Assembly: GCF_003640395.1 (NCBI RefSeq)
Contig: NZ_RBZQ01000001.1
Span: 620,001 to 684,000, forward strand
From: Stutzerimonas urumqiensis
GTDB taxonomy: Bacteria; Pseudomonadota; Gammaproteobacteria; Pseudomonadales; Pseudomonadaceae
Direction: 5' to 3'
Length of the DNA: 64,000 nucleotides
Shown here piece by piece: positions 39,871 to 46,395 of this stretch (its first letter is position 1; every line of letters begins with the position of its first letter). Made by a program: the position numbers and the translations under genes. The notes under the pieces were generated by a model. The model had not been told where the DNA came from. It made no database searches and worked only from the letters and a program-made list of their open reading frames with translations.

Positions 39871-40710
39871 ATGTCTTCATCCGTTCTTACCGACCTGCTG
39901 CAAAAGCACGAGGCTGCGATTCTGCAGGACTGGGTCGCCGCCCAGCGCCAGGCGGGCATCCGTGCCGATCTGATCGACGAGCAGACCGTACAGGCCAATT
40001 CTCGCGACCTGCTGCGCGTCTTCATCACCGCGGCTTCGCAAGGCACGGCCGACCTCGACGCCGAGTATTGGAAGCCGGTCAAAGCGCTGCTCCAGCGTCT
40101 GTCGCAGACCCAGAGCCGGCAGGGCTTTTCCCCGTCGGAAACGGCGACCTTCGTGTTCTCGCTCAAGGAAGTGCTGTTCAGCTACGCCCAGCGCCACACC
40201 GACCAGCCGCTCGTCTGCATCGGCGAAATCAGCCGCCTGATCGACAAGCTCGGCCTCTATAGCTTCGAATCCTTCGTCAGCACCCGCGAGACGGTCATCC
40301 GCGAGCAGCAGGAGAGCATGCTGGAGTTGTCCACGCCGGTCGTGGAGCTGTGGCAGGGCATCCTGGCGATTCCGTTGATCGGTTCGCTGGACAGCAATCG
40401 CACGCAGATCGTCATGGAGGCGTTGCTGCAGAAGATCGTCGAGACCGAGTCGGACATCGCCATCATCGACATCACCGGCGTGCCGACCGTCGACACCATG
40501 GTCGCCCAGCACCTGCTCAAGACCGTCACGGCGGCCAAGCTGATGGGCGCCAAGTGCATCATCAGTGGCATCCGCCCGCAGATCGCCGCGACCATCGTGC
40601 ACCTCGGGGTGGAGCTCGGCGACGTGGTCACCAAGTCGTCGCTGGCCGACGCCTTCCGCCTTGCTCTCAGGGAGCAGGATGTGCGTCTGGTAGCCAACAA
40701 GCCGCGTTGA
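39871..40710 (+). CDS. RsbR-like stressosome scaffold protein (RsbRD_N + STAS)
   Basis: Sensor/scaffold of a stressosome complex. The 279-residue protein has an N-terminal helical RsbR-paralogue domain (about 5-150, with LQKHEAAILQDWVAAQ) and a C-terminal STAS domain (about 160-272). The STAS domain copies Bacillus RsbR at both phosphorylation sites: Thr209 in DITGVPTVDTMVAQHLL, and Thr241 in ISGIRPQIAATIVHLGV. In Bacillus these are phosphorylated by RsbT to release it. ATG 39871 has AAGGAG seven bases upstream. It leads a six-gene operon ending at 45378. The signal sensed by the N-terminal domain is unknown. Confidence 0.9.
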   Translation: MSSSVLTDLLQKHEAAILQDWVAAQRQAGIRADLIDEQTVQANSRDLLRVFITAASQGTADLDAEYWKPVKALLQRLSQTQSRQGFSPSETATFVFSLKEVLFSYAQRHTDQPLVCIGEISRLIDKLGLYSFESFVSTRETVIREQQESMLELSTPVVELWQGILAIPLIGSLDSNRTQIVMEALLQKIVETESDIAIIDITGVPTVDTMVAQHLLKTVTAAKLMGAKCIISGIRPQIAATIVHLGVELGDVVTKSSLADAFRLALREQDVRLVANKPR

Positions 40711-40720
40711 GGAGCCTGCG

Positions 40721-41143
40721 ATGGTTGATCGGATTCCCATTCTGAAGATGGGGCGCTACCTGCTGCTGAGCATTCAGGTGGACATGCACGACCAGCTCGC
40801 GCTGGACCTGCAGGAGGACCTCACGCAGCAGATCGTCAAGCACCGGGCCAAGGGCGTGCTGATCGACATTTCCTCGCTGGAGATCGTCGACTCCTTCATT
40901 GGCCGGATGCTCGCGCACATCGCCAACGTGTCGCAGATTCTCGACGCCAAGGTCATCGTGGTCGGCATGCAGCCGGCCGTGGCCATCACCCTGGTAGAGC
41001 TGGGTCTTTCCCTGGAAGGCATCGCCACCGCACTGAATGTCGAAAAAGGCATGCGCTGGCTGGAACGCAACGTCGATGAAGACCTGAGCCTGGAGTGCGA
41101 GCGTGGGGACGACCCAGACCTTTCCGCTGAAGCAGGAGACTGA
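40721..41143 (+). CDS. RsbS-like STAS protein
   Basis: Single STAS-domain protein (140 residues) that in Bacillus forms the stressosome core with RsbR and holds RsbT inactive. Ser58 in DISSLEIVDSFIGRMLAHIA is at the site phosphorylated by RsbT, and VGMQPAVAITLVELGLSLEG matches RsbS closely. About 20 acidic residues (ending DDPDLSAEAGD) extend beyond the usual RsbS end because the frame runs 41 bases into the next gene. GGAG precedes the ATG. Confidence 0.9.
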   Translation: MVDRIPILKMGRYLLLSIQVDMHDQLALDLQEDLTQQIVKHRAKGVLIDISSLEIVDSFIGRMLAHIANVSQILDAKVIVVGMQPAVAITLVELGLSLEGIATALNVEKGMRWLERNVDEDLSLECERGDDPDLSAEAGD

Positions 41144-41501
41144 CATCGTCGTCATCCGGCAACAGGTCCGCAAGGTCGCCGAACAGGCGCGCCTGGGCCT
41201 GGTCTCGCAGACCAAGATCGTCACGGCCGCCAGCGAGATCGCGCGTAACGCGCTGATCTATGGCGGTGGCGGCGAAGCGCGGTTGACCGGGACTCAACGT
41301 GACGGGCGATCGGCGGTTCACCTGGTGATCATCGATCACGGCGCCGGCATCGAGGACCTCGACAAGGCGATGGTCGATGGCTACACCTCAGGCAACGGCC
41401 TGGGGCTGGGCCTGAGCGGTGCGCGGCGGCTGGTCGATGACTTTTCCATCCGCAGCGCACCGGGCGAGGGGACGACCGTGGAGTTATGGAAGTGGCGCTG
41501 A
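41103..41501 (+). CDS. RsbT-like serine/threonine kinase (GHKL ATPase)
   Basis: Kinase of the anti-sigma-factor type, 132 residues, predicted to phosphorylate the STAS domains of the two preceding proteins and then leave the complex to activate a partner. ATP-site motifs: N box SEIARNALIYGGGG (Asn49), G1 DHGAGIEDLDKAM (Asp79 region) and G2 SGNGLGLGLSGARRLVDD. The GTG start at 41103 lies inside the rsbS-like gene, so synthesis is coupled. In Bacillus the partner of RsbT is the phosphatase RsbU; no RsbU gene with the matching binding domain is in the window. Confidence 0.9.
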   Translation: MGTTQTFPLKQETDIVVIRQQVRKVAEQARLGLVSQTKIVTAASEIARNALIYGGGGEARLTGTQRDGRSAVHLVIIDHGAGIEDLDKAMVDGYTSGNGLGLGLSGARRLVDDFSIRSAPGEGTTVELWKWR

Positions 41502-42475
41502 TGCCCGATCAGCATCAGCAAATGATCGAGGTGAGCGACCCGGCGCATGTCGATGCGGCGCGCCGGGCCGCGGTCCGCCTGGCCGAGCGGGTACGGGCCG
41601 ACGAGCAGTGGCTCGGGCGTATCACGGTCGTCACCCAGGAGCTGGCGCGCAATCTGGTGCTCCATGCCGGTGGCGGCAGCGTGCTGCTGTCGCTGGACCG
41701 GCACGGTCTCGACCTGGTCGCCGTCGACAAGGGGCCGGGAATGGCCAACATCGCGCAGTGCCTGAGCGACAGCTATTCGACCGCCGGCACCATGGGCGCG
41801 GGGCTCGGTGCCATCCGGCGCATGTCCGATGCCTTCGATATCTACTCGCAGCCGGGCCAGGGCACGCTGGTCCATGCGCATTTCGACATCGAGCCGCCAA
41901 GCGCGGCGGGCCTGAAGGTGGGCGCCGTCTCGACGCCGTATCCCGGTGAAACGCTGTGCGGCGATGCCTGGGCGGTGCTCGGCAACCGCATCATGGTGTG
42001 CGACGGCCTCGGCCACGGGCATGCCGCGCATGAGGCGAGCCAGCGTGCGCGCAGCCTGTTTCTCGATCACGACAGCTCGATCCCCTTGCCGACGCTGATG
42101 GAGCGCCTGCACCGTGCCTTGGCCGACACGCGCGGCGGCGCCGTCGCCTTCGCCGAGATCCAGCCGGCGCGGGGGCAGGTCGAGTTCTGCGGCATCGGCA
42201 ACATCGCCGGCGTGCTGCTCGCCGAGCGCTCGCGCAGCATGGTGTCGGCCAATGGCACGGTGGGCTACAAGATCGGCCGGGTGCAGACATTCACCTACCC
42301 GTGGGACCCGGCCACGGTGCTGGTGATGAGCTCCGACGGCATCGGCACCAAGTGGGACCTGAACGGCTATCCAGGTCTGTTTCGTCGCAGCCCGGCGATC
42401 ATCGCCGCCCAGGTGCATCGCGATTTCCGGCGGCTGAACGACGACGCGACGGTCGTGGTGGTGAAGGGTGAATAG
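41501..42475 (+). CDS. RsbT-like ATPase fused to RsbX/PP2C-type phosphatase
   Basis: Two-domain protein of 324 residues. Residues of about 5-130 are a second GHKL ATPase (VTQELARNLVLHAGGG; DKGPGMANIAQCL; MGAGLGAIRRMSDAF). Residues of about 140-320 are a PP2C/SpoIIE-type phosphatase with GDAWAVLGNRIMVCDGLGHG and the second Asp in VMSSDGIGTKWDL. RsbX in Bacillus dephosphorylates RsbR and RsbS to reset the stressosome and has no ATPase domain. The ATG at 41501 overlaps the rsbT-like stop (TGATG) with GGAAG eight bases ahead; an ATG at 41486 is less well placed. Confidence 0.88.
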   Translation: MPDQHQQMIEVSDPAHVDAARRAAVRLAERVRADEQWLGRITVVTQELARNLVLHAGGGSVLLSLDRHGLDLVAVDKGPGMANIAQCLSDSYSTAGTMGAGLGAIRRMSDAFDIYSQPGQGTLVHAHFDIEPPSAAGLKVGAVSTPYPGETLCGDAWAVLGNRIMVCDGLGHGHAAHEASQRARSLFLDHDSSIPLPTLMERLHRALADTRGGAVAFAEIQPARGQVEFCGIGNIAGVLLAERSRSMVSANGTVGYKIGRVQTFTYPWDPATVLVMSSDGIGTKWDLNGYPGLFRRSPAIIAAQVHRDFRRLNDDATVVVVKGE

Positions 42476-44231
42476 TCGACGTCCGCTAACCTCGGTGACG
42501 ATCCGCGAGGAAGTCGATGTCGTCGCCTGCCGGCAGTGCGCCAAACGCATCGCCGAGTGGCTGGGCATGAGTCGCCTGGAACAGATTCGGGTGGCGACCT
42601 CGGTGTCCGAACTGGCGCGCAACATCTACCAGTACGCCGGAACCGGCAGCTTTCAGTTCCAGCTCGAGCTGGACGAGCGCGGCCAGTTGGTGGCGATGGG
42701 CTTCGAGGCCCGCGACAAGGGGCCGGGCATCGCGCAGATCGACGCCATTCTCGACGGCAGCTACGTCTCGGCGACCGGCATGGGTGTCGGCTTGCGCGGC
42801 GCGCATCGGCTAATGGACAGCTTCGAGATCGACACCGGCCCGGCGGGTACGCGTATCAGTGCCGCCAAGCGAGTGCATCCGCCGCGTCCAGCCCCGAGCG
42901 ACGCCAGCGTGCGCGCCTTCCAGGATGCGCTGGCTCACGAGGGCACAGTCGATCCGTTCCGCGAAATCCAGGTGCAGGGCGAGGAGCTGATGCTCACCAA
43001 CGCCGAGCTGGTGGCCAAGCAGCAGGAGCTGGAGGCGACCAACCTGGAGCTGGCCAGCACCAACAAAGGCGTGGTGGCGCTCTATTCGGAGCTCGAGAAG
43101 ACCGCGCAGGACCTGCAGGAGGCGAGCGAGTCCAAGAGCCGGTTCTTCTCCAACATGACGCACGAGTTCCGCACGCCCATCAACATCATCGAGAACATGT
43201 CCAAGCTGCTCCAGAGCGGGGCGGACGGCACGCTCAATCCCGAGCAGCGCAAGCAGGTCGGGTTCATCAGCGATGCGGTGAGCGAGTTGTCGCAGCTGGT
43301 CAACGAACTGCTCGACCTGGCCGAAGCGCAGTCAGGGCGCATGGACGTGGTGCCCGGCGCGTTCGGACTGGTCGACTTCATGTTGCAGCTGCGCCAGTTC
43401 GGCTCGGCGCTCTCGACCCGCTACCCGAAGGTCGACTGCCAGGTTCACCTGCCGGACCGTGACCTGCCGATGAACACGGACCGCAACCGGCTGTTCCAGA
43501 TTCTCCGCAACCTGATCAGCAATGCGATCAAGTACACGCCCCAGGGTGAGGTGAACGTGCGGGTGTTCCAGACCGACGAGCACTGCGTCGAGTTTCTCGT
43601 CGAGGACACCGGCATCGGCATTGCCGAGGAACATCAGGCACAGGTGTTCGAAGAGTTCTGCCGCATTCGTTCGCCGGGCCTGACGCATATCGAGGGCACC
43701 GGCCTCGGCTTGCCGCTGGCCAAGCGACTGGCCGGCCTGCTCAAGGGCGACCTGTCGCTCAGCAGCACGCTCGGCAAGGGCAGCCGGTTCTTCGTCCGGT
43801 TGCCGTGCGCGTTCGAGCATCAGGAAGTGCCGTCAGCCCGCGCCGGCCTGAAGGGCACCACCGTGCTGGTCATCGACGACAACGCGGCCGATCGCTATCT
43901 CGTCGGCCGGGCGCTTCAGCCGTTCGACGTGGTGCTGATCGAGGCGGACACTGCGCGCGCCAGCATCGACAAGCTGCATGCGGTGCGCCCGGACGTCATC
44001 CTGCTCGACCTCGACCTGCCGGACATCAGCGGCGAAGACCTGCTCGAAAGCATGGACTGGGCGATGCACCAGCGGGTGATCGTCAATACGGCCAAGGCGC
44101 TTGGCGAAAGCGACCGTGAGCGGCTGGCGCCGATGTGCCACGCCATCCTTGATAAGTCCCGCCCCGATTACAGCGAGGCGTTGATAGAGGCCATCGAGCG
44201 CCTCGTATGGAGTCATGCGCATGAAGGCTAA
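42468..44231 (+). CDS. Hybrid histidine kinase with N-terminal RsbT-like ATPase
   Basis: Soluble protein of 587 residues. Order: RsbT-like GHKL ATPase (about 10-135; SVSELARNIYQYAGTG, DKGPGIAQIDAIL, GMGVGLRGAHRLMDSF), coiled coil (about 165-220), HisKA with His232 in FFSNMTHEFRTPINIIENM, HATPase_c with NLISNAIKYT and GTGLGLPLAKRLAGLL, and a receiver with VLVIDDNAADRYLVG and VILLDLDLPDISGEDLL. The GTG start overlaps the phosphatase gene by eight bases. It thus carries both an anti-sigma-type kinase domain and a complete phosphorelay kinase, linking the stressosome switch to two-component signalling. Confidence 0.9.
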   Translation: MNSRRPLTSVTIREEVDVVACRQCAKRIAEWLGMSRLEQIRVATSVSELARNIYQYAGTGSFQFQLELDERGQLVAMGFEARDKGPGIAQIDAILDGSYVSATGMGVGLRGAHRLMDSFEIDTGPAGTRISAAKRVHPPRPAPSDASVRAFQDALAHEGTVDPFREIQVQGEELMLTNAELVAKQQELEATNLELASTNKGVVALYSELEKTAQDLQEASESKSRFFSNMTHEFRTPINIIENMSKLLQSGADGTLNPEQRKQVGFISDAVSELSQLVNELLDLAEAQSGRMDVVPGAFGLVDFMLQLRQFGSALSTRYPKVDCQVHLPDRDLPMNTDRNRLFQILRNLISNAIKYTPQGEVNVRVFQTDEHCVEFLVEDTGIGIAEEHQAQVFEEFCRIRSPGLTHIEGTGLGLPLAKRLAGLLKGDLSLSSTLGKGSRFFVRLPCAFEHQEVPSARAGLKGTTVLVIDDNAADRYLVGRALQPFDVVLIEADTARASIDKLHAVRPDVILLDLDLPDISGEDLLESMDWAMHQRVIVNTAKALGESDRERLAPMCHAILDKSRPDYSEALIEAIERLVWSHAHEG

Positions 44232-45378
44232 GCGGCGCATCGTCATCATCGACGACATGGATGCCAACCGGTACGTGCTGAGGAAGATCATCGCGGGCGA
44301 ATCGCGCTACGACGTGCTCGAAGCCGGCTGCGGCGCCGACGGGCTGGCGTTGATCGACGAGACGGTCGACCTGGTGATCGTCGACATCAACCTGCCCGAC
44401 ATGAGCGGTTTCGAGCTGGTGCAGGCGATGCGCGACAAGCTGGCCGGCGAGCGCATGCCGGCGGTCATCAACATCTCGGCGACCTTCGTCTCGGGAAAGG
44501 ACAAGGCCACCGGCCTGAACCAGGGCGCCCAGGCTTACCTGACGCACCCGATCAACCCGGACGAAGTGCTGGCGACCATTTCGCTGCTGCTCAAGGCCAA
44601 CAACCGCATGGAGCGCATCGAGCAGCAGCGCAACGTCGCCATCGCGCGCAGCGAAACCTTGCGCACGGAAAAGATCATGCTCGAGCGCTTCATGCGTTCG
44701 CTGAACCATGACCTGCGCTCGCCGCTGTCGTCGGCGACGATGGTGGCCAACCTCATGCGGCGCAATCCCAGCCGGCGTACCGATGACCTGATCAAGGTGC
44801 TCGAAGGGAATTTGCAGCGCATCGAGCAGATGATCAGCAATGTGCTGGACATCTCGCACATGAGCCTCGGTGGTGGCCTCAAGCTGCGTGGCGAGTCGCT
44901 TTCGCTGCGCGCGCTGCTGGACCAGGCGCTGGACAACCTGCGTTATCAGGTCGGCAACCCGCTGCGGCTGGAAGCCGAGCCCGCCGATCGCCAGGTGTTC
45001 TGGGACAAGCAGAGCTTCCTGCGCATCTTCGACAACCTGGTCATCAATGCCGCCAAGCACGGCGCCCCAGGCGAGCCGATCGACATCCGCCAGTGGGTCG
45101 ACGGCGACACCGTGGGCATCCAGGTCAGCAACGTTGGCCAGCTACCGGAGGAGGTGCTGGAGAACCTGGCCACCCCGTACTTCATCTCGACCCGCAGCGA
45201 CACCAAGGGCTGGGGGCTGGGCCTGCCGATCGTCAAGGCGCTGAGCGAGAGCTTCGGCGGAAGCGTCAACTTCGCCAACCGGGAGGGGCGGGTGCTGGTG
45301 GACGTGCGCCTGCCCATCAACATGAACAACGATGGCACCGGCATCGAGCTGGCCGGACGCACGCTCGGTAGCCACTGA
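44215..45378 (+). CDS. Receiver-histidine kinase, end of the stressosome operon
   Basis: Protein of 387 residues with an N-terminal receiver domain (IVIIDDMDANRYVLRKII; acceptor Asp57 in LVIVDINLPDMSGFELV) followed by HisKA (His165 in MRSLNHDLRSPLSSATMVAN) and HATPase_c (NLVINAAKHG; GWGLGLPIVKALSESFGG). The receiver position normally occupied by Lys before Pro is His111 (THPINPDE), which may alter phosphorylation kinetics. No DNA-binding or cyclic-di-GMP domain is present. It overlaps the previous gene by 17 bases; ATG 44221 is an alternative start. Confidence 0.88.
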   Translation: MRMKAKRRIVIIDDMDANRYVLRKIIAGESRYDVLEAGCGADGLALIDETVDLVIVDINLPDMSGFELVQAMRDKLAGERMPAVINISATFVSGKDKATGLNQGAQAYLTHPINPDEVLATISLLLKANNRMERIEQQRNVAIARSETLRTEKIMLERFMRSLNHDLRSPLSSATMVANLMRRNPSRRTDDLIKVLEGNLQRIEQMISNVLDISHMSLGGGLKLRGESLSLRALLDQALDNLRYQVGNPLRLEAEPADRQVFWDKQSFLRIFDNLVINAAKHGAPGEPIDIRQWVDGDTVGIQVSNVGQLPEEVLENLATPYFISTRSDTKGWGLGLPIVKALSESFGGSVNFANREGRVLVDVRLPINMNNDGTGIELAGRTLGSH

Positions 45379-45399: not shown

Positions 45400-46395
45400 A
45401 TGCGGACAATCGTCTTCAGCACTCAGCCGTATGACCGGCGGTTCCTCGACGAAGCCAACGCCGCGCGACCACCTGCCGAGCGCTTCCTGATCGATTACCA
45501 GGAAGCGGCCCTTGACGCCCGCACCGCTGCGCTCGCCGAGGGTTACGAGGCGGTCTGCGTGTTCGTCAACGATGTGGTCGACGAGACCGTCCTGCAGGCG
45601 CTGGTGAAGTCGGGTGTGCGCGCCGTGCTGCTGCGGTGCGCCGGCTTCAATAATGTCGATCCGGACGCGGCCCGCCGGCTCGGCATCGCCATTGCCCGCG
45701 TGCCGGCGTACTCACCCGAGGCGGTAGCCGAGCACACGCTGGCGCTGATCCTGACGCTCAACCGCAAGACGCACCGGGCCTTCAACCGGGTGCGAGAGGG
45801 CAACTTCCGACTCGAAGGGCTGCTGGGCAGTACCCTGCATGGCAAGACGGCCGGTGTCATCGGGCTCGGCAGAATAGGCCTCGCTACGGCGAGAATCCTG
45901 CGCGGCTTCGGCTGCCAGGTGCTCGGTCACGATCCCGTTGTGCCGCCCGGTTTCGTCGAGCTGGGACGCGAGGTGGCGCTGGATGAATTGCTGGCGACAG
46001 CCGACATCGTGTCGCTGCATTGCCCGCTCACCGAACAGACCCGTCACCTCATCGATGCGCGCAGCCTGGGCCTGATGAAAACCGGCGCCATGCTGGTCAA
46101 TACGTCGCGCGGCGCACTGATCGATACCGGCGCCGTGATCGAGGCGCTGAAGACGCGCCAGCTGGGCGCTCTGGCGATCGATGTCTACGAGCAGGAGGCC
46201 GAGCTGTTCTTCCGCGATCGTTCCGGCGAAATCATCGATGACGATGTCTTCCAGCGGCTGATGACCTTCCCTAATGTGCTGGTGACCGGTCACCAGGGCT
46301 TCTTCACGGTGGAGGCGCTGCGCGAGATCAGCGAGACGACGCTGGATAACCTCGCCTGCCTGCGTAGCGGGCGTCCCTGTCCGAACGCGCTCTGA
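45400..46395 (+). CDS. ldhA: D-lactate dehydrogenase, NAD-dependent
   Basis: Fermentative 2-hydroxyacid dehydrogenase reducing pyruvate to D-lactate. The 331-residue protein has the NAD motif GVIGLGRIGLATARIL, the substrate Arg in NTSRGALIDTGAV, and the catalytic Glu and His in VYEQEAELFF and VTGHQGFFT, as in E. coli LdhA. GGAGGTGGG just before ATG 45400 is a strong ribosome binding site. It starts 21 bases after the stressosome operon on the same strand, so read-through co-transcription is possible. It abuts the convergent MFS gene. Confidence 0.93.
   Translation: MRTIVFSTQPYDRRFLDEANAARPPAERFLIDYQEAALDARTAALAEGYEAVCVFVNDVVDETVLQALVKSGVRAVLLRCAGFNNVDPDAARRLGIAIARVPAYSPEAVAEHTLALILTLNRKTHRAFNRVREGNFRLEGLLGSTLHGKTAGVIGLGRIGLATARILRGFGCQVLGHDPVVPPGFVELGREVALDELLATADIVSLHCPLTEQTRHLIDARSLGLMKTGAMLVNTSRGALIDTGAVIEALKTRQLGALAIDVYEQEAELFFRDRSGEIIDDDVFQRLMTFPNVLVTGHQGFFTVEALREISETTLDNLACLRSGRPCPNAL

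What the first reader, a model, noticed from the sequence alone, without database searches (positions are those of the whole stretch)
39871..45378. Six-gene stressosome operon with three separate RsbT-type ATPase domains
The order RsbR-RsbS-RsbT is that of a stressosome core, with the phosphorylation sites conserved (Thr209 and Thr241 of the RsbR-like protein, Ser58 of the RsbS-like protein). What follows is unusual: an RsbX-type phosphatase that begins with another RsbT-like ATPase, then a hybrid histidine kinase that begins with a third, then a receiver-kinase. All genes overlap or nearly touch. Three switch-type kinases could compete for the same STAS proteins, or one stressosome may release three outputs. 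No RsbU, sigma factor, anti-sigma factor, cyclase or DNA-binding protein is encoded, so the end target is unknown. Stressosome clusters joined to two-component genes are known in Vibrio and others, but I do not recall this triple ATPase layout being described.
Basis: partly seen in the sequence, partly recalled or inferred. Interest (0 to 1): 0.87.

Follow-up and report, generated by a model that had tools for sequence, protein, structure and literature searches.

The report
Stressosome wired to a histidine kinase
Six overlapping bacterial genes encode a stress-sensing complex in which copies of its own release switch are fused to the reset enzyme and to a histidine kinase; the same layout recurs in many bacterial phyla and suggests how such complexes may control ordinary two-component signalling.

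Summary
Observation confirmed: RsbR, RsbS, RsbT (T1), an RsbT-like domain fused to RsbX (T2::X), another fused to a hybrid histidine kinase (T3::HK-REC), then REC-HK, in overlapping frames. The layout is not peculiar to this Stutzerimonas-like genome. A genome-wide scan found at least 583 relatives; of the 80 kept and read, 73 have the exact order R-S-T-(T2X)-(T3HK), in nine phyla. T1 of these operons, T2X and T3 are separate lineages. T3 resembles RsbT (median 81 bits), not RsbW (5 bits). In 53 RsbS-seeded stressosome loci the output protein carries T3 (20, one partial) or the known RsbT-docking domain RsbU_N (12 by Pfam, 2 weak), never both; 9 kinases carry neither. RsbU_N is absent from this genome and from 19 of 20 other T3 genomes. 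Best reading: T3 replaces RsbU_N, so the kinase itself is a stressosome client and its release or activation is the output. Binding of T3 to RsbS/RsbR and the final target are inferred, not tested. Deinococcus radiodurans has the whole operon. New variant of a known kind.

The parts
39871..40710 (+). RsbR-like co-antagonist: RsbRD_N (res 6-104) + STAS (res 158-248); Thr209 and Thr241
   Evidence: Pfam; PDB RsbR hits; phosphosites
40721..41143 (+). RsbS-like antagonist, STAS domain, Ser58
   Evidence: Pfam; best PDB hits RsbS 6jhk (4.2e-31) and 6qcm
41103..41501 (+). T1: stand-alone RsbT-type switch kinase, GTG start
   Evidence: Pfam; T1 group; 36.6% identity to Lysinibacillus RsbT
41486..42475 (+). 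T2::X, RsbT-like ATPase fused to RsbX-type PP2C phosphatase
   Evidence: Pfam; RsbX 3w40; AF2 pLDDT 90.9 pTM 0.90; Foldseek
41510..41887 (+). T2 domain (res 9-134); ATP-site residues kept; Arg23 and N-box Arg48 not conserved across the family
41927..42466 (+). RsbX-type PP2C domain (res 148-327); D160, D173, D284, D319, D320 invariant in 40 aligned rows
42468..44231 (+). T3::HK-REC, RsbT-like ATPase fused through a long helix to a hybrid histidine kinase, GTG start
   Evidence: Pfam; AF2
42474..42890 (+). T3 domain (res 3-141), the most RsbT-like of the three here (39.3% to Lysinibacillus RsbT)
42954..43130 (+). linker helix (res 163-221, part of a predicted continuous helix 163-249) with the nearly invariant E-L-x-x-T-N-x-G-V-V-A-L-Y-x-E-L motif (res 194-209)
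43131..43337 (+). HisKA/DHp (res 222-290), His232 invariant in the alignment
43479..43805 (+). HATPase_c of the histidine kinase (res 338-446)
43863..44102 (+). receiver domain (res 466-545), Asp514 invariant in the alignment
44215..45378 (+). REC-HK: receiver followed by HisKA and HATPase_c; found after T3::HK in 20 of 20 Pseudomonas-type relatives checked (L121 and L146 appear to be the same record)
   Evidence: Pfam

Best explanation
This is a stressosome signalling operon in which the RsbT switch kinase exists as three specialised paralogues. T1 (free RsbT) is the core kinase of the RsbR/RsbS STAS scaffold. T2 is fused to the reset phosphatase RsbX. T3 is fused, through a continuous helical linker, to a hybrid histidine kinase. 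Proposed working: at rest, unphosphorylated RsbS (Ser58) on the scaffold holds T1 and, through T3, the histidine kinase. On a stress felt by the RsbR N-terminal domain, T1 (perhaps also T3) phosphorylates RsbR Thr209/Thr241 and RsbS Ser58. The T3::HK is then released or re-oriented, the change passes down the linker helix into the DHp domain, and phosphate flows to its receiver and to the REC-HK. T2::X is held at the scaffold by T2 and removes the phosphates, resetting the system. In other stressosome operons the downstream kinase instead starts with RsbU_N, the docking site for freed RsbT; here T3 stands at that place, so the kinase carries its own copy of the switch. Shown: domain content, order, conservation, separate lineages, retained catalytic residues, no RsbU_N match in this genome. 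Inferred: T3 and T2 binding to the STAS scaffold, the sign of the effect on the histidine kinase, and the order of phosphotransfer. Unknown: the stress and the final target.
For: Domains. Order kept in 73 of the 80 loci read. Tree of 121 T domains: 45 T1, 44 T2, 32 T3 rows need 2 label changes against a shuffled mean of 56; T3 is one group at 96 SH-aLRT. With RsbT and RsbW of a Lysinibacillus sigB locus added: T3 99, T1 of these operons 99, T2 94. T3 scores as RsbT (median 80.9 bits, 89 seqs), not RsbW (4.9 bits). ATP-site E45, N49, D78 kept in 94 of 94 T3; in T2X 118, 118 and 119 of 119. R19 kept in 94 of 94 T3, R23 R or K in 88 of 94, but R23 lost in T2X; R19 and R23 are RsbU-facing residues of B. 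subtilis RsbT (PMC12143880 section 8). Swap: RsbS-seeded loci (architectures 29, 33, 60, 67; Pfam 52, 86, 93) give T3 in 20 of 53 (one partial), Pfam-confirmed RsbU_N in 12 of 53, both in 0. RsbU_N genome-wide: own genome 0, other T3 genomes 1 of 20 (weak), RsbU_N-class genomes 15 of 16. AF2: T3 folded (pLDDT blocks 73-95), then helix 163-249 into DHp. Phosphosites invariant in T3-type loci.
Against: No binding or activity was tested. T3 has Gly (91 of 94) where RsbT has Asp92, which pairs with the RsbU linker, and T1 keeps Asp92 in 88 of 89 T3-type operons although no RsbU_N was found with them, so T1 may still grip some linker in trans. 28 of 28 same-genus relatives and 9 of the 53 sampled loci have the same kind of kinase with neither T3 nor RsbU_N, so T3 is not strictly needed for this kinase family to sit with a stressosome. 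T3 also sits on other kinase cores (HisKA_2 type in L126; divergent cores in L122, L123, L178). One genome (G802, Solirubrobacter) has both a T3 operon and a separate RsbU_N operon (L156, L231), so exclusion is per operon, not per genome. T3 and RsbU_N both sit at a protein's N-terminus, so some exclusion is expected without any functional swap. pTM of the T3::HK model is 0.43 (domain placement unsure). phmmer finds no solved relative of T3 at 1e-3. RsbT Asn24, also RsbU-facing, is not conserved in T1, T2X or T3.
Confidence: 0.55

Rival explanations
1. T1 is the only scaffold-bound switch. Freed T1 acts in trans on the linker of the histidine kinase, as RsbT does on RsbU, and T3 is a dimer partner or nucleotide-bound regulatory cap for that linker rather than a scaffold-binding domain.
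For: T1 keeps Asp92 in 88 of 89 T3-type loci while T3 has Gly in 91 of 94; the linker motif is nearly invariant and is also kept, with small changes, by kinases without T3; 28 of 28 same-genus operons lack both T3 and RsbU_N.
Against: T3 keeps R19, R23 (or K), R48 and the whole ATP site, more than a cap would seem to need; Asp92 is also missing in 10 of 19 T1 of RsbU_N operons, so it is not a clean marker.
Confidence: 0.22
2. T2::X is a bifunctional kinase/phosphatase for RsbR/RsbS (in the manner of kinase-phosphatase fusions of other partner-switching systems), and T1, T2 and T3 are all active kinases competing for the same STAS proteins.
For: Catalytic Glu, Asn and Asp and the glycines are kept almost without exception in T1, T2X and T3; PP2C metal ligands invariant in T2X.
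Against: The T2X family lost Arg23 and mostly Arg48 and has longer branches; lower similarity to RsbT (median 51 against 89 and 81 bits), which fits a tether better than a second full kinase.
Confidence: 0.15
3. T2 and T3 are nucleotide sensors (ATP/ADP state) that tune the phosphatase and the histidine kinase without touching the STAS scaffold.
For: ATP site kept in both; RsbT-like kinases bind ATP/ADP (general knowledge).
Against: RsbT-type residues kept in T3; T3 found with the stressosome genes in 73 of 80 loci read; of the other 7 most are cut at a contig end or split, and only L181 and L212 show no core genes in the stretch held.
Confidence: 0.08

Closest known systems
Bacillus subtilis / Listeria stressosome (RsbR-RsbS-RsbT, RsbX) with RsbU-RsbV-RsbW-SigB output
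   Same: RsbR, RsbS, RsbT, RsbX components and phosphosites; RsbX-type phosphatase
   Different: No RsbU, RsbV, RsbW or SigB in the operon; RsbX fused to an RsbT-like domain; output is a histidine kinase carrying an RsbT-like domain instead of a phosphatase carrying RsbU_N
Vibrio-type rsbRSTX with two-component genes (V. vulnificus VvD1/VvD2; V. brasiliensis; PMC9237108, PMC4976288, PMC10014275)
   Same: Stressosome core followed by RsbX and two-component genes; no RsbU_N on the downstream kinase
   Different: There RsbR has a globin sensor and RsbX is a single domain (PMC9237108 section 10); no RsbT-like fusions are described in the passages read; how the kinase is reached was left open
RsbU_N-bearing signalling proteins, histidine kinases among them, beside rsbRST (PMC9237108 section 10; also cited in PMC12143880)
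   Same: Same operon position and same type of output kinase
   Different: RsbU_N (docking site for RsbT) there, RsbT-like T3 here; in the RsbU_N loci read here T2 is separate or absent, not fused to RsbX
Deinococcus radiodurans MP1 operon DR_RS15570-DR_RS15595 (kinases probably DR_B0028/DR_B0029 of PMC6501615)
   Same: The same six-gene, three-ATPase layout
   Different: PMC6501615 (section 21) mentions only kinases thought to be co-regulated with an 'antisigma factor-regulation system', citing Makarova 2001 (not read); the fusions are annotated as 'anti-sigma regulatory factor' and 'ATP-binding protein'
Rv1364c and HsbR-type phosphatase-kinase fusions (Rv1364c structure 3ke6 is; HsbR and the roles are recalled)
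   Same: PP2C and GHKL switch-kinase domains in one chain
   Different: Different domain order and partners; not part of a stressosome (recalled)

Membership tests
Stressosome (RsbRST) locus | Adjacent RsbR-, RsbS- and RsbT-like genes | tested here: met
Stressosome (RsbRST) locus | Conserved phosphosites (two Thr in RsbR STAS, one Ser in RsbS) | tested here: met
   Thr209, Thr241, Ser58; 89/89, 89/89, 90/90 in T3-type loci
Stressosome (RsbRST) locus | Assembly of RsbR and RsbS into a megadalton particle that binds RsbT | not testable with these tools
   needs purified proteins
SigB-type output module | RsbU (RsbU_N + PP2C), RsbV, RsbW, SigB beside rsbRST | tested here: not met
   none among the six genes or the four flanking genes tested; no RsbU_N match in the genome
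Vibrio-type rsbRSTX + two-component module | Globin-coupled RsbR and single-domain RsbX | tested here: not met
   RsbRD_N, not globin; RsbX fused to HATPase_c_2
RsbT family (T1) | Closer to RsbT than to RsbW; ATP-site E, N, D, G motifs | tested here: met
   70.9 bits to Lysinibacillus RsbT, no hit to RsbW
RsbT family (T3) | Closer to RsbT than to RsbW; R19, R23, R48 | tested here: met
   85.9 bits RsbT, 16.2 bits (E 0.58) RsbW; R19 94/94, R23 R or K 88/94, R48 94/94
RsbT family (T3) | Asp92, which contacts the RsbU linker | tested here: not met
   Gly in 91 of 94
RsbT family (T2) | R23 and R48 | tested here: not met
   R23 lost, R48 in 23 of 119; the window's own T2 has the N-box Arg but Val at the R23 column
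RsbX phosphatase | PP2C domain closest to RsbX, metal ligands kept | tested here: met
   3w40 8.1e-10 and 3zt9 9.2e-08 the only PDB hits at 0.1; same two lead in Foldseek; ligands invariant
NCBIfam equivalogs | Any equivalog cut-off passed | tested here: not met
   T1: TIGR01925 52.2 bits, cut-off 135; none over its cut-off in the rows shown (best 25 for the two kinases)

The most novel reading that the evidence does not exclude
A histidine kinase that is itself a stressosome client: a duplicated RsbT domain fused to the kinase lets a Ser/Thr partner-switching scaffold hold and release a His-Asp phosphorelay directly. It takes the place of the RsbU_N/RsbT docking step and is used across many bacterial phyla, with a second RsbT-derived domain tethering the reset phosphatase to the same scaffold.
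Probability: 0.5. Interest if true: 0.8.

Novelty: new variant of a known kind. Interest (0 to 1): 0.66.

Why it matters
How stressosomes outside the Bacillus group pass their signal on is an open question: in Vibrio vulnificus no RsbU_N was detected on the kinase beside the stressosome and no RsbT-kinase interaction could be shown (PMC9237108 section 10). A kinase that carries its own RsbT domain, at the place where other operons have RsbU_N, gives a physical answer that can be tested in one pull-down. The layout is widespread, lies under vague labels such as 'ATP-binding protein' in public records, and is present in the genetically tractable Deinococcus radiodurans.

Tried and rejected
Considered and rejected: (1) that the extra HATPase domains are ordinary histidine-kinase ATPase domains or RsbW/SpoIIAB anti-sigma factors; similarity to RsbT against RsbW from one sigB locus and the tree speak against it. 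(2) That the layout is a chance fusion of this genome; rejected. (3) That the 2-hydroxyacid dehydrogenase gene about 20 nt downstream belongs to the module; found near only 1 of 20 relatives, and there about 1.9 kb away. (4) A sigma-70-like promoter: none found; the 5 terminator-like sites found are close to chance (mean 3.0 in shuffles). (5) Viral spread: no relative in viral contigs with a single-protein query, a weak test.

Led nowhere: phmmer of T3 against the PDB gave no hit. Foldseek of the T3::HK model showed only histidine-kinase entries in its 50 rows, so it says nothing about T3. The VIA-align library was not available. Asp92 did not separate operon types cleanly. T2 genes that stand alone could not be placed firmly with T2X (support 66; apart from T2X). 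The automatic 'none/NA' class is mixed (cut loci, and T3 loci such as L160 and L213 that the script could not sort), so I draw nothing from it. Papers most likely to mention the layout (Pane-Farre 2005 by PubMed id; a Deinococcus genome review by DOI) are not held.


Full report
WHAT IS THERE. Six open frames lie at the stated places on the + strand. One gap is 10 nt; the other four junctions overlap by 41, 16, 8 and 17 nt. Pfam gives: RsbRD_N + STAS (39871-40710); STAS (40721-41143); HATPase_c/HATPase_c_2 (41103-41501, here T1); HATPase_c_2 + SpoIIE-type PP2C (41486-42475, here T2::X); HATPase_c_2 + HisKA + HATPase_c + receiver (42468-44231, here T3::HK); receiver + HisKA + HATPase_c (44215-45378). 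The RsbR and RsbS assignments are backed by solved RsbR and RsbS chains and the phosphatase by RsbX 3w40 and 3zt9. No NCBIfam cut-off is reached in the rows shown. No sigma-70-like promoter was found, so co-transcription is inferred from gene overlap only. Upstream, on the other strand, are selA and selB; downstream, about 20 nt away, is a 2-hydroxyacid dehydrogenase gene that lies near the operon in only 1 of 20 relatives checked.

HOW COMMON. In the same genus, 28 of 36 other genomes have a related operon (39-44% identity in T2::X), and all 28 of these have T1, T2::X and a histidine kinase without T3 or RsbU_N (own profiles, short flanks). So the window's operon is of another type than that of most of its genus. 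A profile of T3 plus linker found full-length fusions in several Pseudomonadota. In 73 of these 80 the order RsbRD_N-STAS, STAS, T, T-PP2C, T-HK is exact: 44 Pseudomonadota, 10 Cyanobacteriota, 9 Acidobacteriota, 4 Actinomycetota, 2 Rokuibacteriota and one each of Spirochaetota, Bdellovibrionota, Planctomycetota and Myxococcota; several rest on MAG contigs. The other 7: L151, L155, L175 and L202 are cut near a contig end; in L213 the R-S-T genes lie on the other strand nearby; in L181 and L212 no core gene was seen in the stretch held. Deinococcus radiodurans R1 has all six on megaplasmid MP1, adding a tenth phylum. The sixth gene varies: mostly REC-HK or REC-HK-REC, REC-PP2C in 4 Thermoleophilia loci.

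SEPARATE LINEAGES. On a tree of 121 T domains, the labels T1, T2 and T3 need only 2 changes (shuffled mean 56); T3 is one group at 96 SH-aLRT, T1 of T2::X-type operons one group at 99, while T2 as a whole has only 66 and T1 as a whole is not one clade (one search is a first version with long branches, where T3 needed 2 changes). With RsbT and RsbW from a Lysinibacillus sigB locus added (98 rows), T3 (99), T1 of these operons (99) and T2 (94) each lie on one side of a branch; RsbT falls among T1 of RsbU_N operons, and T2 falls outside that RsbT set. That RsbT is named by gene order: it precedes an RsbU_N-SpoIIE gene, a STAS gene, rsbW and sigB. The tree has few columns and the RsbW branch is very long, so deeper order is unsure. 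Similarity to this RsbT: median 88.8 bits (T1, 107 sequences), 80.9 (T3, 89), 51.0 (T2X, 104); to RsbW medians of 3-8 bits. The window's T3 is its most RsbT-like domain (39.3%, 85.9 bits). ATP-site residues E45, N49 and D78 are kept in T3 (94 of 94) and T2X (118, 118, 119 of 119). T3 keeps R19, R23 (R or K in 88 of 94) and the N-box R48; T2X keeps R19 (113 of 119) but not R23 and has R48 in 23 of 119. In B. subtilis RsbT, R19, R23 and N24 lie in the RsbU interface and D92 pairs with the RsbU linker (PMC12143880, section 8 read; D92 also). Position 24 is not conserved in any lineage. D92 is kept in 88 of 89 T1 of T3-type operons, is Gly in 91 of 94 T3, and is kept in only 9 of 19 T1 of RsbU_N operons, so it is not a clean marker. 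These counts are not de-duplicated (for example L156/L158, and L121/L146 appear to be one record).

THE SWAP. To avoid the bias of searching with T3, RsbS was used as seed at E <= 1e-12 (more distant stressosomes are missed): 26 of 398 Pseudomonadota genomes, 9 of 194 in the phylum of a cyanobacterial locus (10 loci) and 16 of 199 in the phylum of an acidobacterial locus (17 loci). Architectures were read, with Pfam checks; the class of each locus I assigned by hand from these. Of the 53 loci: 20 have T3 on the kinase (one, G697/L125, only in part); 12 have Pfam-confirmed RsbU_N; 2 more have it by my own profile only (L215, L230; Pfam did not confirm); 9 have a kinase with neither; 5 have another output (GGDEF-EAL in L217, L220 and L221; a SpoIIE phosphatase in L216; another kinase, N-terminus not examined, in L219); 2 (L246, L247) lack a separate T1 and have a T-fused phosphatase followed by a degenerate T; 3 are cut. 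None has both T3 and RsbU_N (L153 and L179 were read without the RsbU_N profile, but one search shows no RsbU_N at those operons). RsbX is fused to T2 in all 20 T3 loci and all 9 'neither' loci, and in none of the 12 RsbU_N loci, where T2 is a separate gene or absent. RsbU_N has no match in the genome of the window. In one search it was found in 1 of 20 other T3 genomes (G800, 26.6 bits in a 103-residue frame, another contig), 0 of 9 'neither' genomes and 15 of 16 genomes of the RsbU_N class (G445 missed; five of these 16 had served to build my local profile, the Pfam model is independent). One Solirubrobacter genome has both a T3 operon (L156) and a separate RsbU_N-phosphatase operon (L231). 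Because both domains sit at an N-terminus, part of the exclusion is trivial; what is not trivial is that T3, an RsbT copy, stands where the RsbT docking site stands elsewhere, and that RsbU_N is then usually gone from the genome.

The kinases with neither domain form one clade (100) inside the T3 kinases on a tree of 46 kinases, but the enclosing branch has 82, so loss of T3 is favoured and not shown. They keep the linker motif as TN-x-GVLALY(A/S)ELD. T3 also sits on other kinase cores (L126, HisKA_2; L122, L123 and L178 on a far branch).

STRUCTURE. The T2::X model is confident (pLDDT 90.9, pTM 0.90): an RsbX-like PP2C domain (3zt9, TM 0.86 by target) and a SpoIIAB-like domain (1th8, TM 0.85 by target). 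The T3::HK model has a folded T3 (pLDDT blocks 73-95) followed by a helix from residue 163 to 249 running into DHp (mean pLDDT 83.6, pTM 0.43; helix blocks 63-78); domain placement is not reliable. This is the kind of helical linker through which RsbT is proposed to switch RsbU and through which histidine kinases receive signals (PMC12143880, passages and section 8).

MECHANISM. See Best explanation. Shown: genes, domains, conservation, lineages, residues, no RsbU_N match. Inferred: that T3 and T2 bind the STAS scaffold, that Ser58 phosphorylation frees T3::HK, and the direction of the effect. Unknown: the stress and the end target.

LITERATURE. In ten searches of the open library (the lists of 36, 53, 109 and 116 were cut at 15-25 rows) no listing or passage that I saw describes RsbT-type domains fused both to RsbX and to a histidine kinase in one stressosome operon; most listed papers I saw only as title and start of abstract. 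Read further: passages of PMC9237108 (section 10 in full), PMC4976288, PMC10014275, PMC12143880 (section 8 in full), PMC5209427, PMC7647112, PMC8363230 and PMC6501615 (section 21 in full); outline and section 9 of PMC9237128. PMC6501615 reports that DR_B0028 is more abundant after vacuum exposure and that it and DR_B0029 are thought to be co-regulated with an antisigma regulation operon, citing Makarova 2001 (not read); that DR_B0028 is DR_RS15590 is my inference. The reviews of stressosome modules by Pane-Farre and colleagues are not held and may describe part of this.

VERDICT. A real, conserved operon; a new variant of the stressosome family rather than a new kind; of interest because it makes an open question about stressosome output directly testable.

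Noticed in passing
L260 (Deinococcus radiodurans R1 plasmid MP1, 4134-9938 of the locus): The complete six-gene three-ATPase operon in a well-studied, tractable bacterium, annotated only as STAS, anti-sigma regulatory factor and ATP-binding proteins.
   Followed up: yes
L156 and L231 (Solirubrobacter, genome G802): One genome holds two stressosome operons, one of the T3 type followed by REC-PP2C and one beside an RsbU_N-GAF-SpoIIE phosphatase.
   Followed up: partly
L217, L220, L221: Stressosome loci whose next gene is a PAS-GGDEF-EAL protein; in L220 and L221 no separate RsbT was found, only a T-PP2C fusion.
   Followed up: no
L246, L247: Loci from the acidobacterial-phylum sample in which an RsbT-like domain with the N-box Arg is itself fused to the phosphatase and a degenerate T follows: an apparently separate fusion event.
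   Followed up: no
L082, L083, L085, L086, L215, L218, L229: A second, stand-alone RsbT-like gene sits between rsbT and rsbX; it may be the unfused form of T2, but the trees do not settle it.
   Followed up: partly
G000:C13:391130-393086 (own genome, outside the window): A 618-residue frame with SpoIIE and HATPase_c_2 matches next to a STAS gene, resembling the HsbR/HsbA pair of Pseudomonas (resemblance recalled).
   Followed up: no
window 45400-46392: D-isomer 2-hydroxyacid dehydrogenase gene about 20 nt after the operon; near the operon in only 1 of 20 relatives checked.
   Followed up: yes
plasmid hits H20, H23: RsbT-like genes annotated as anti-sigma regulatory factor on haloarchaeal plasmids; in H20 the match also covers a STAS gene.
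   Followed up: no
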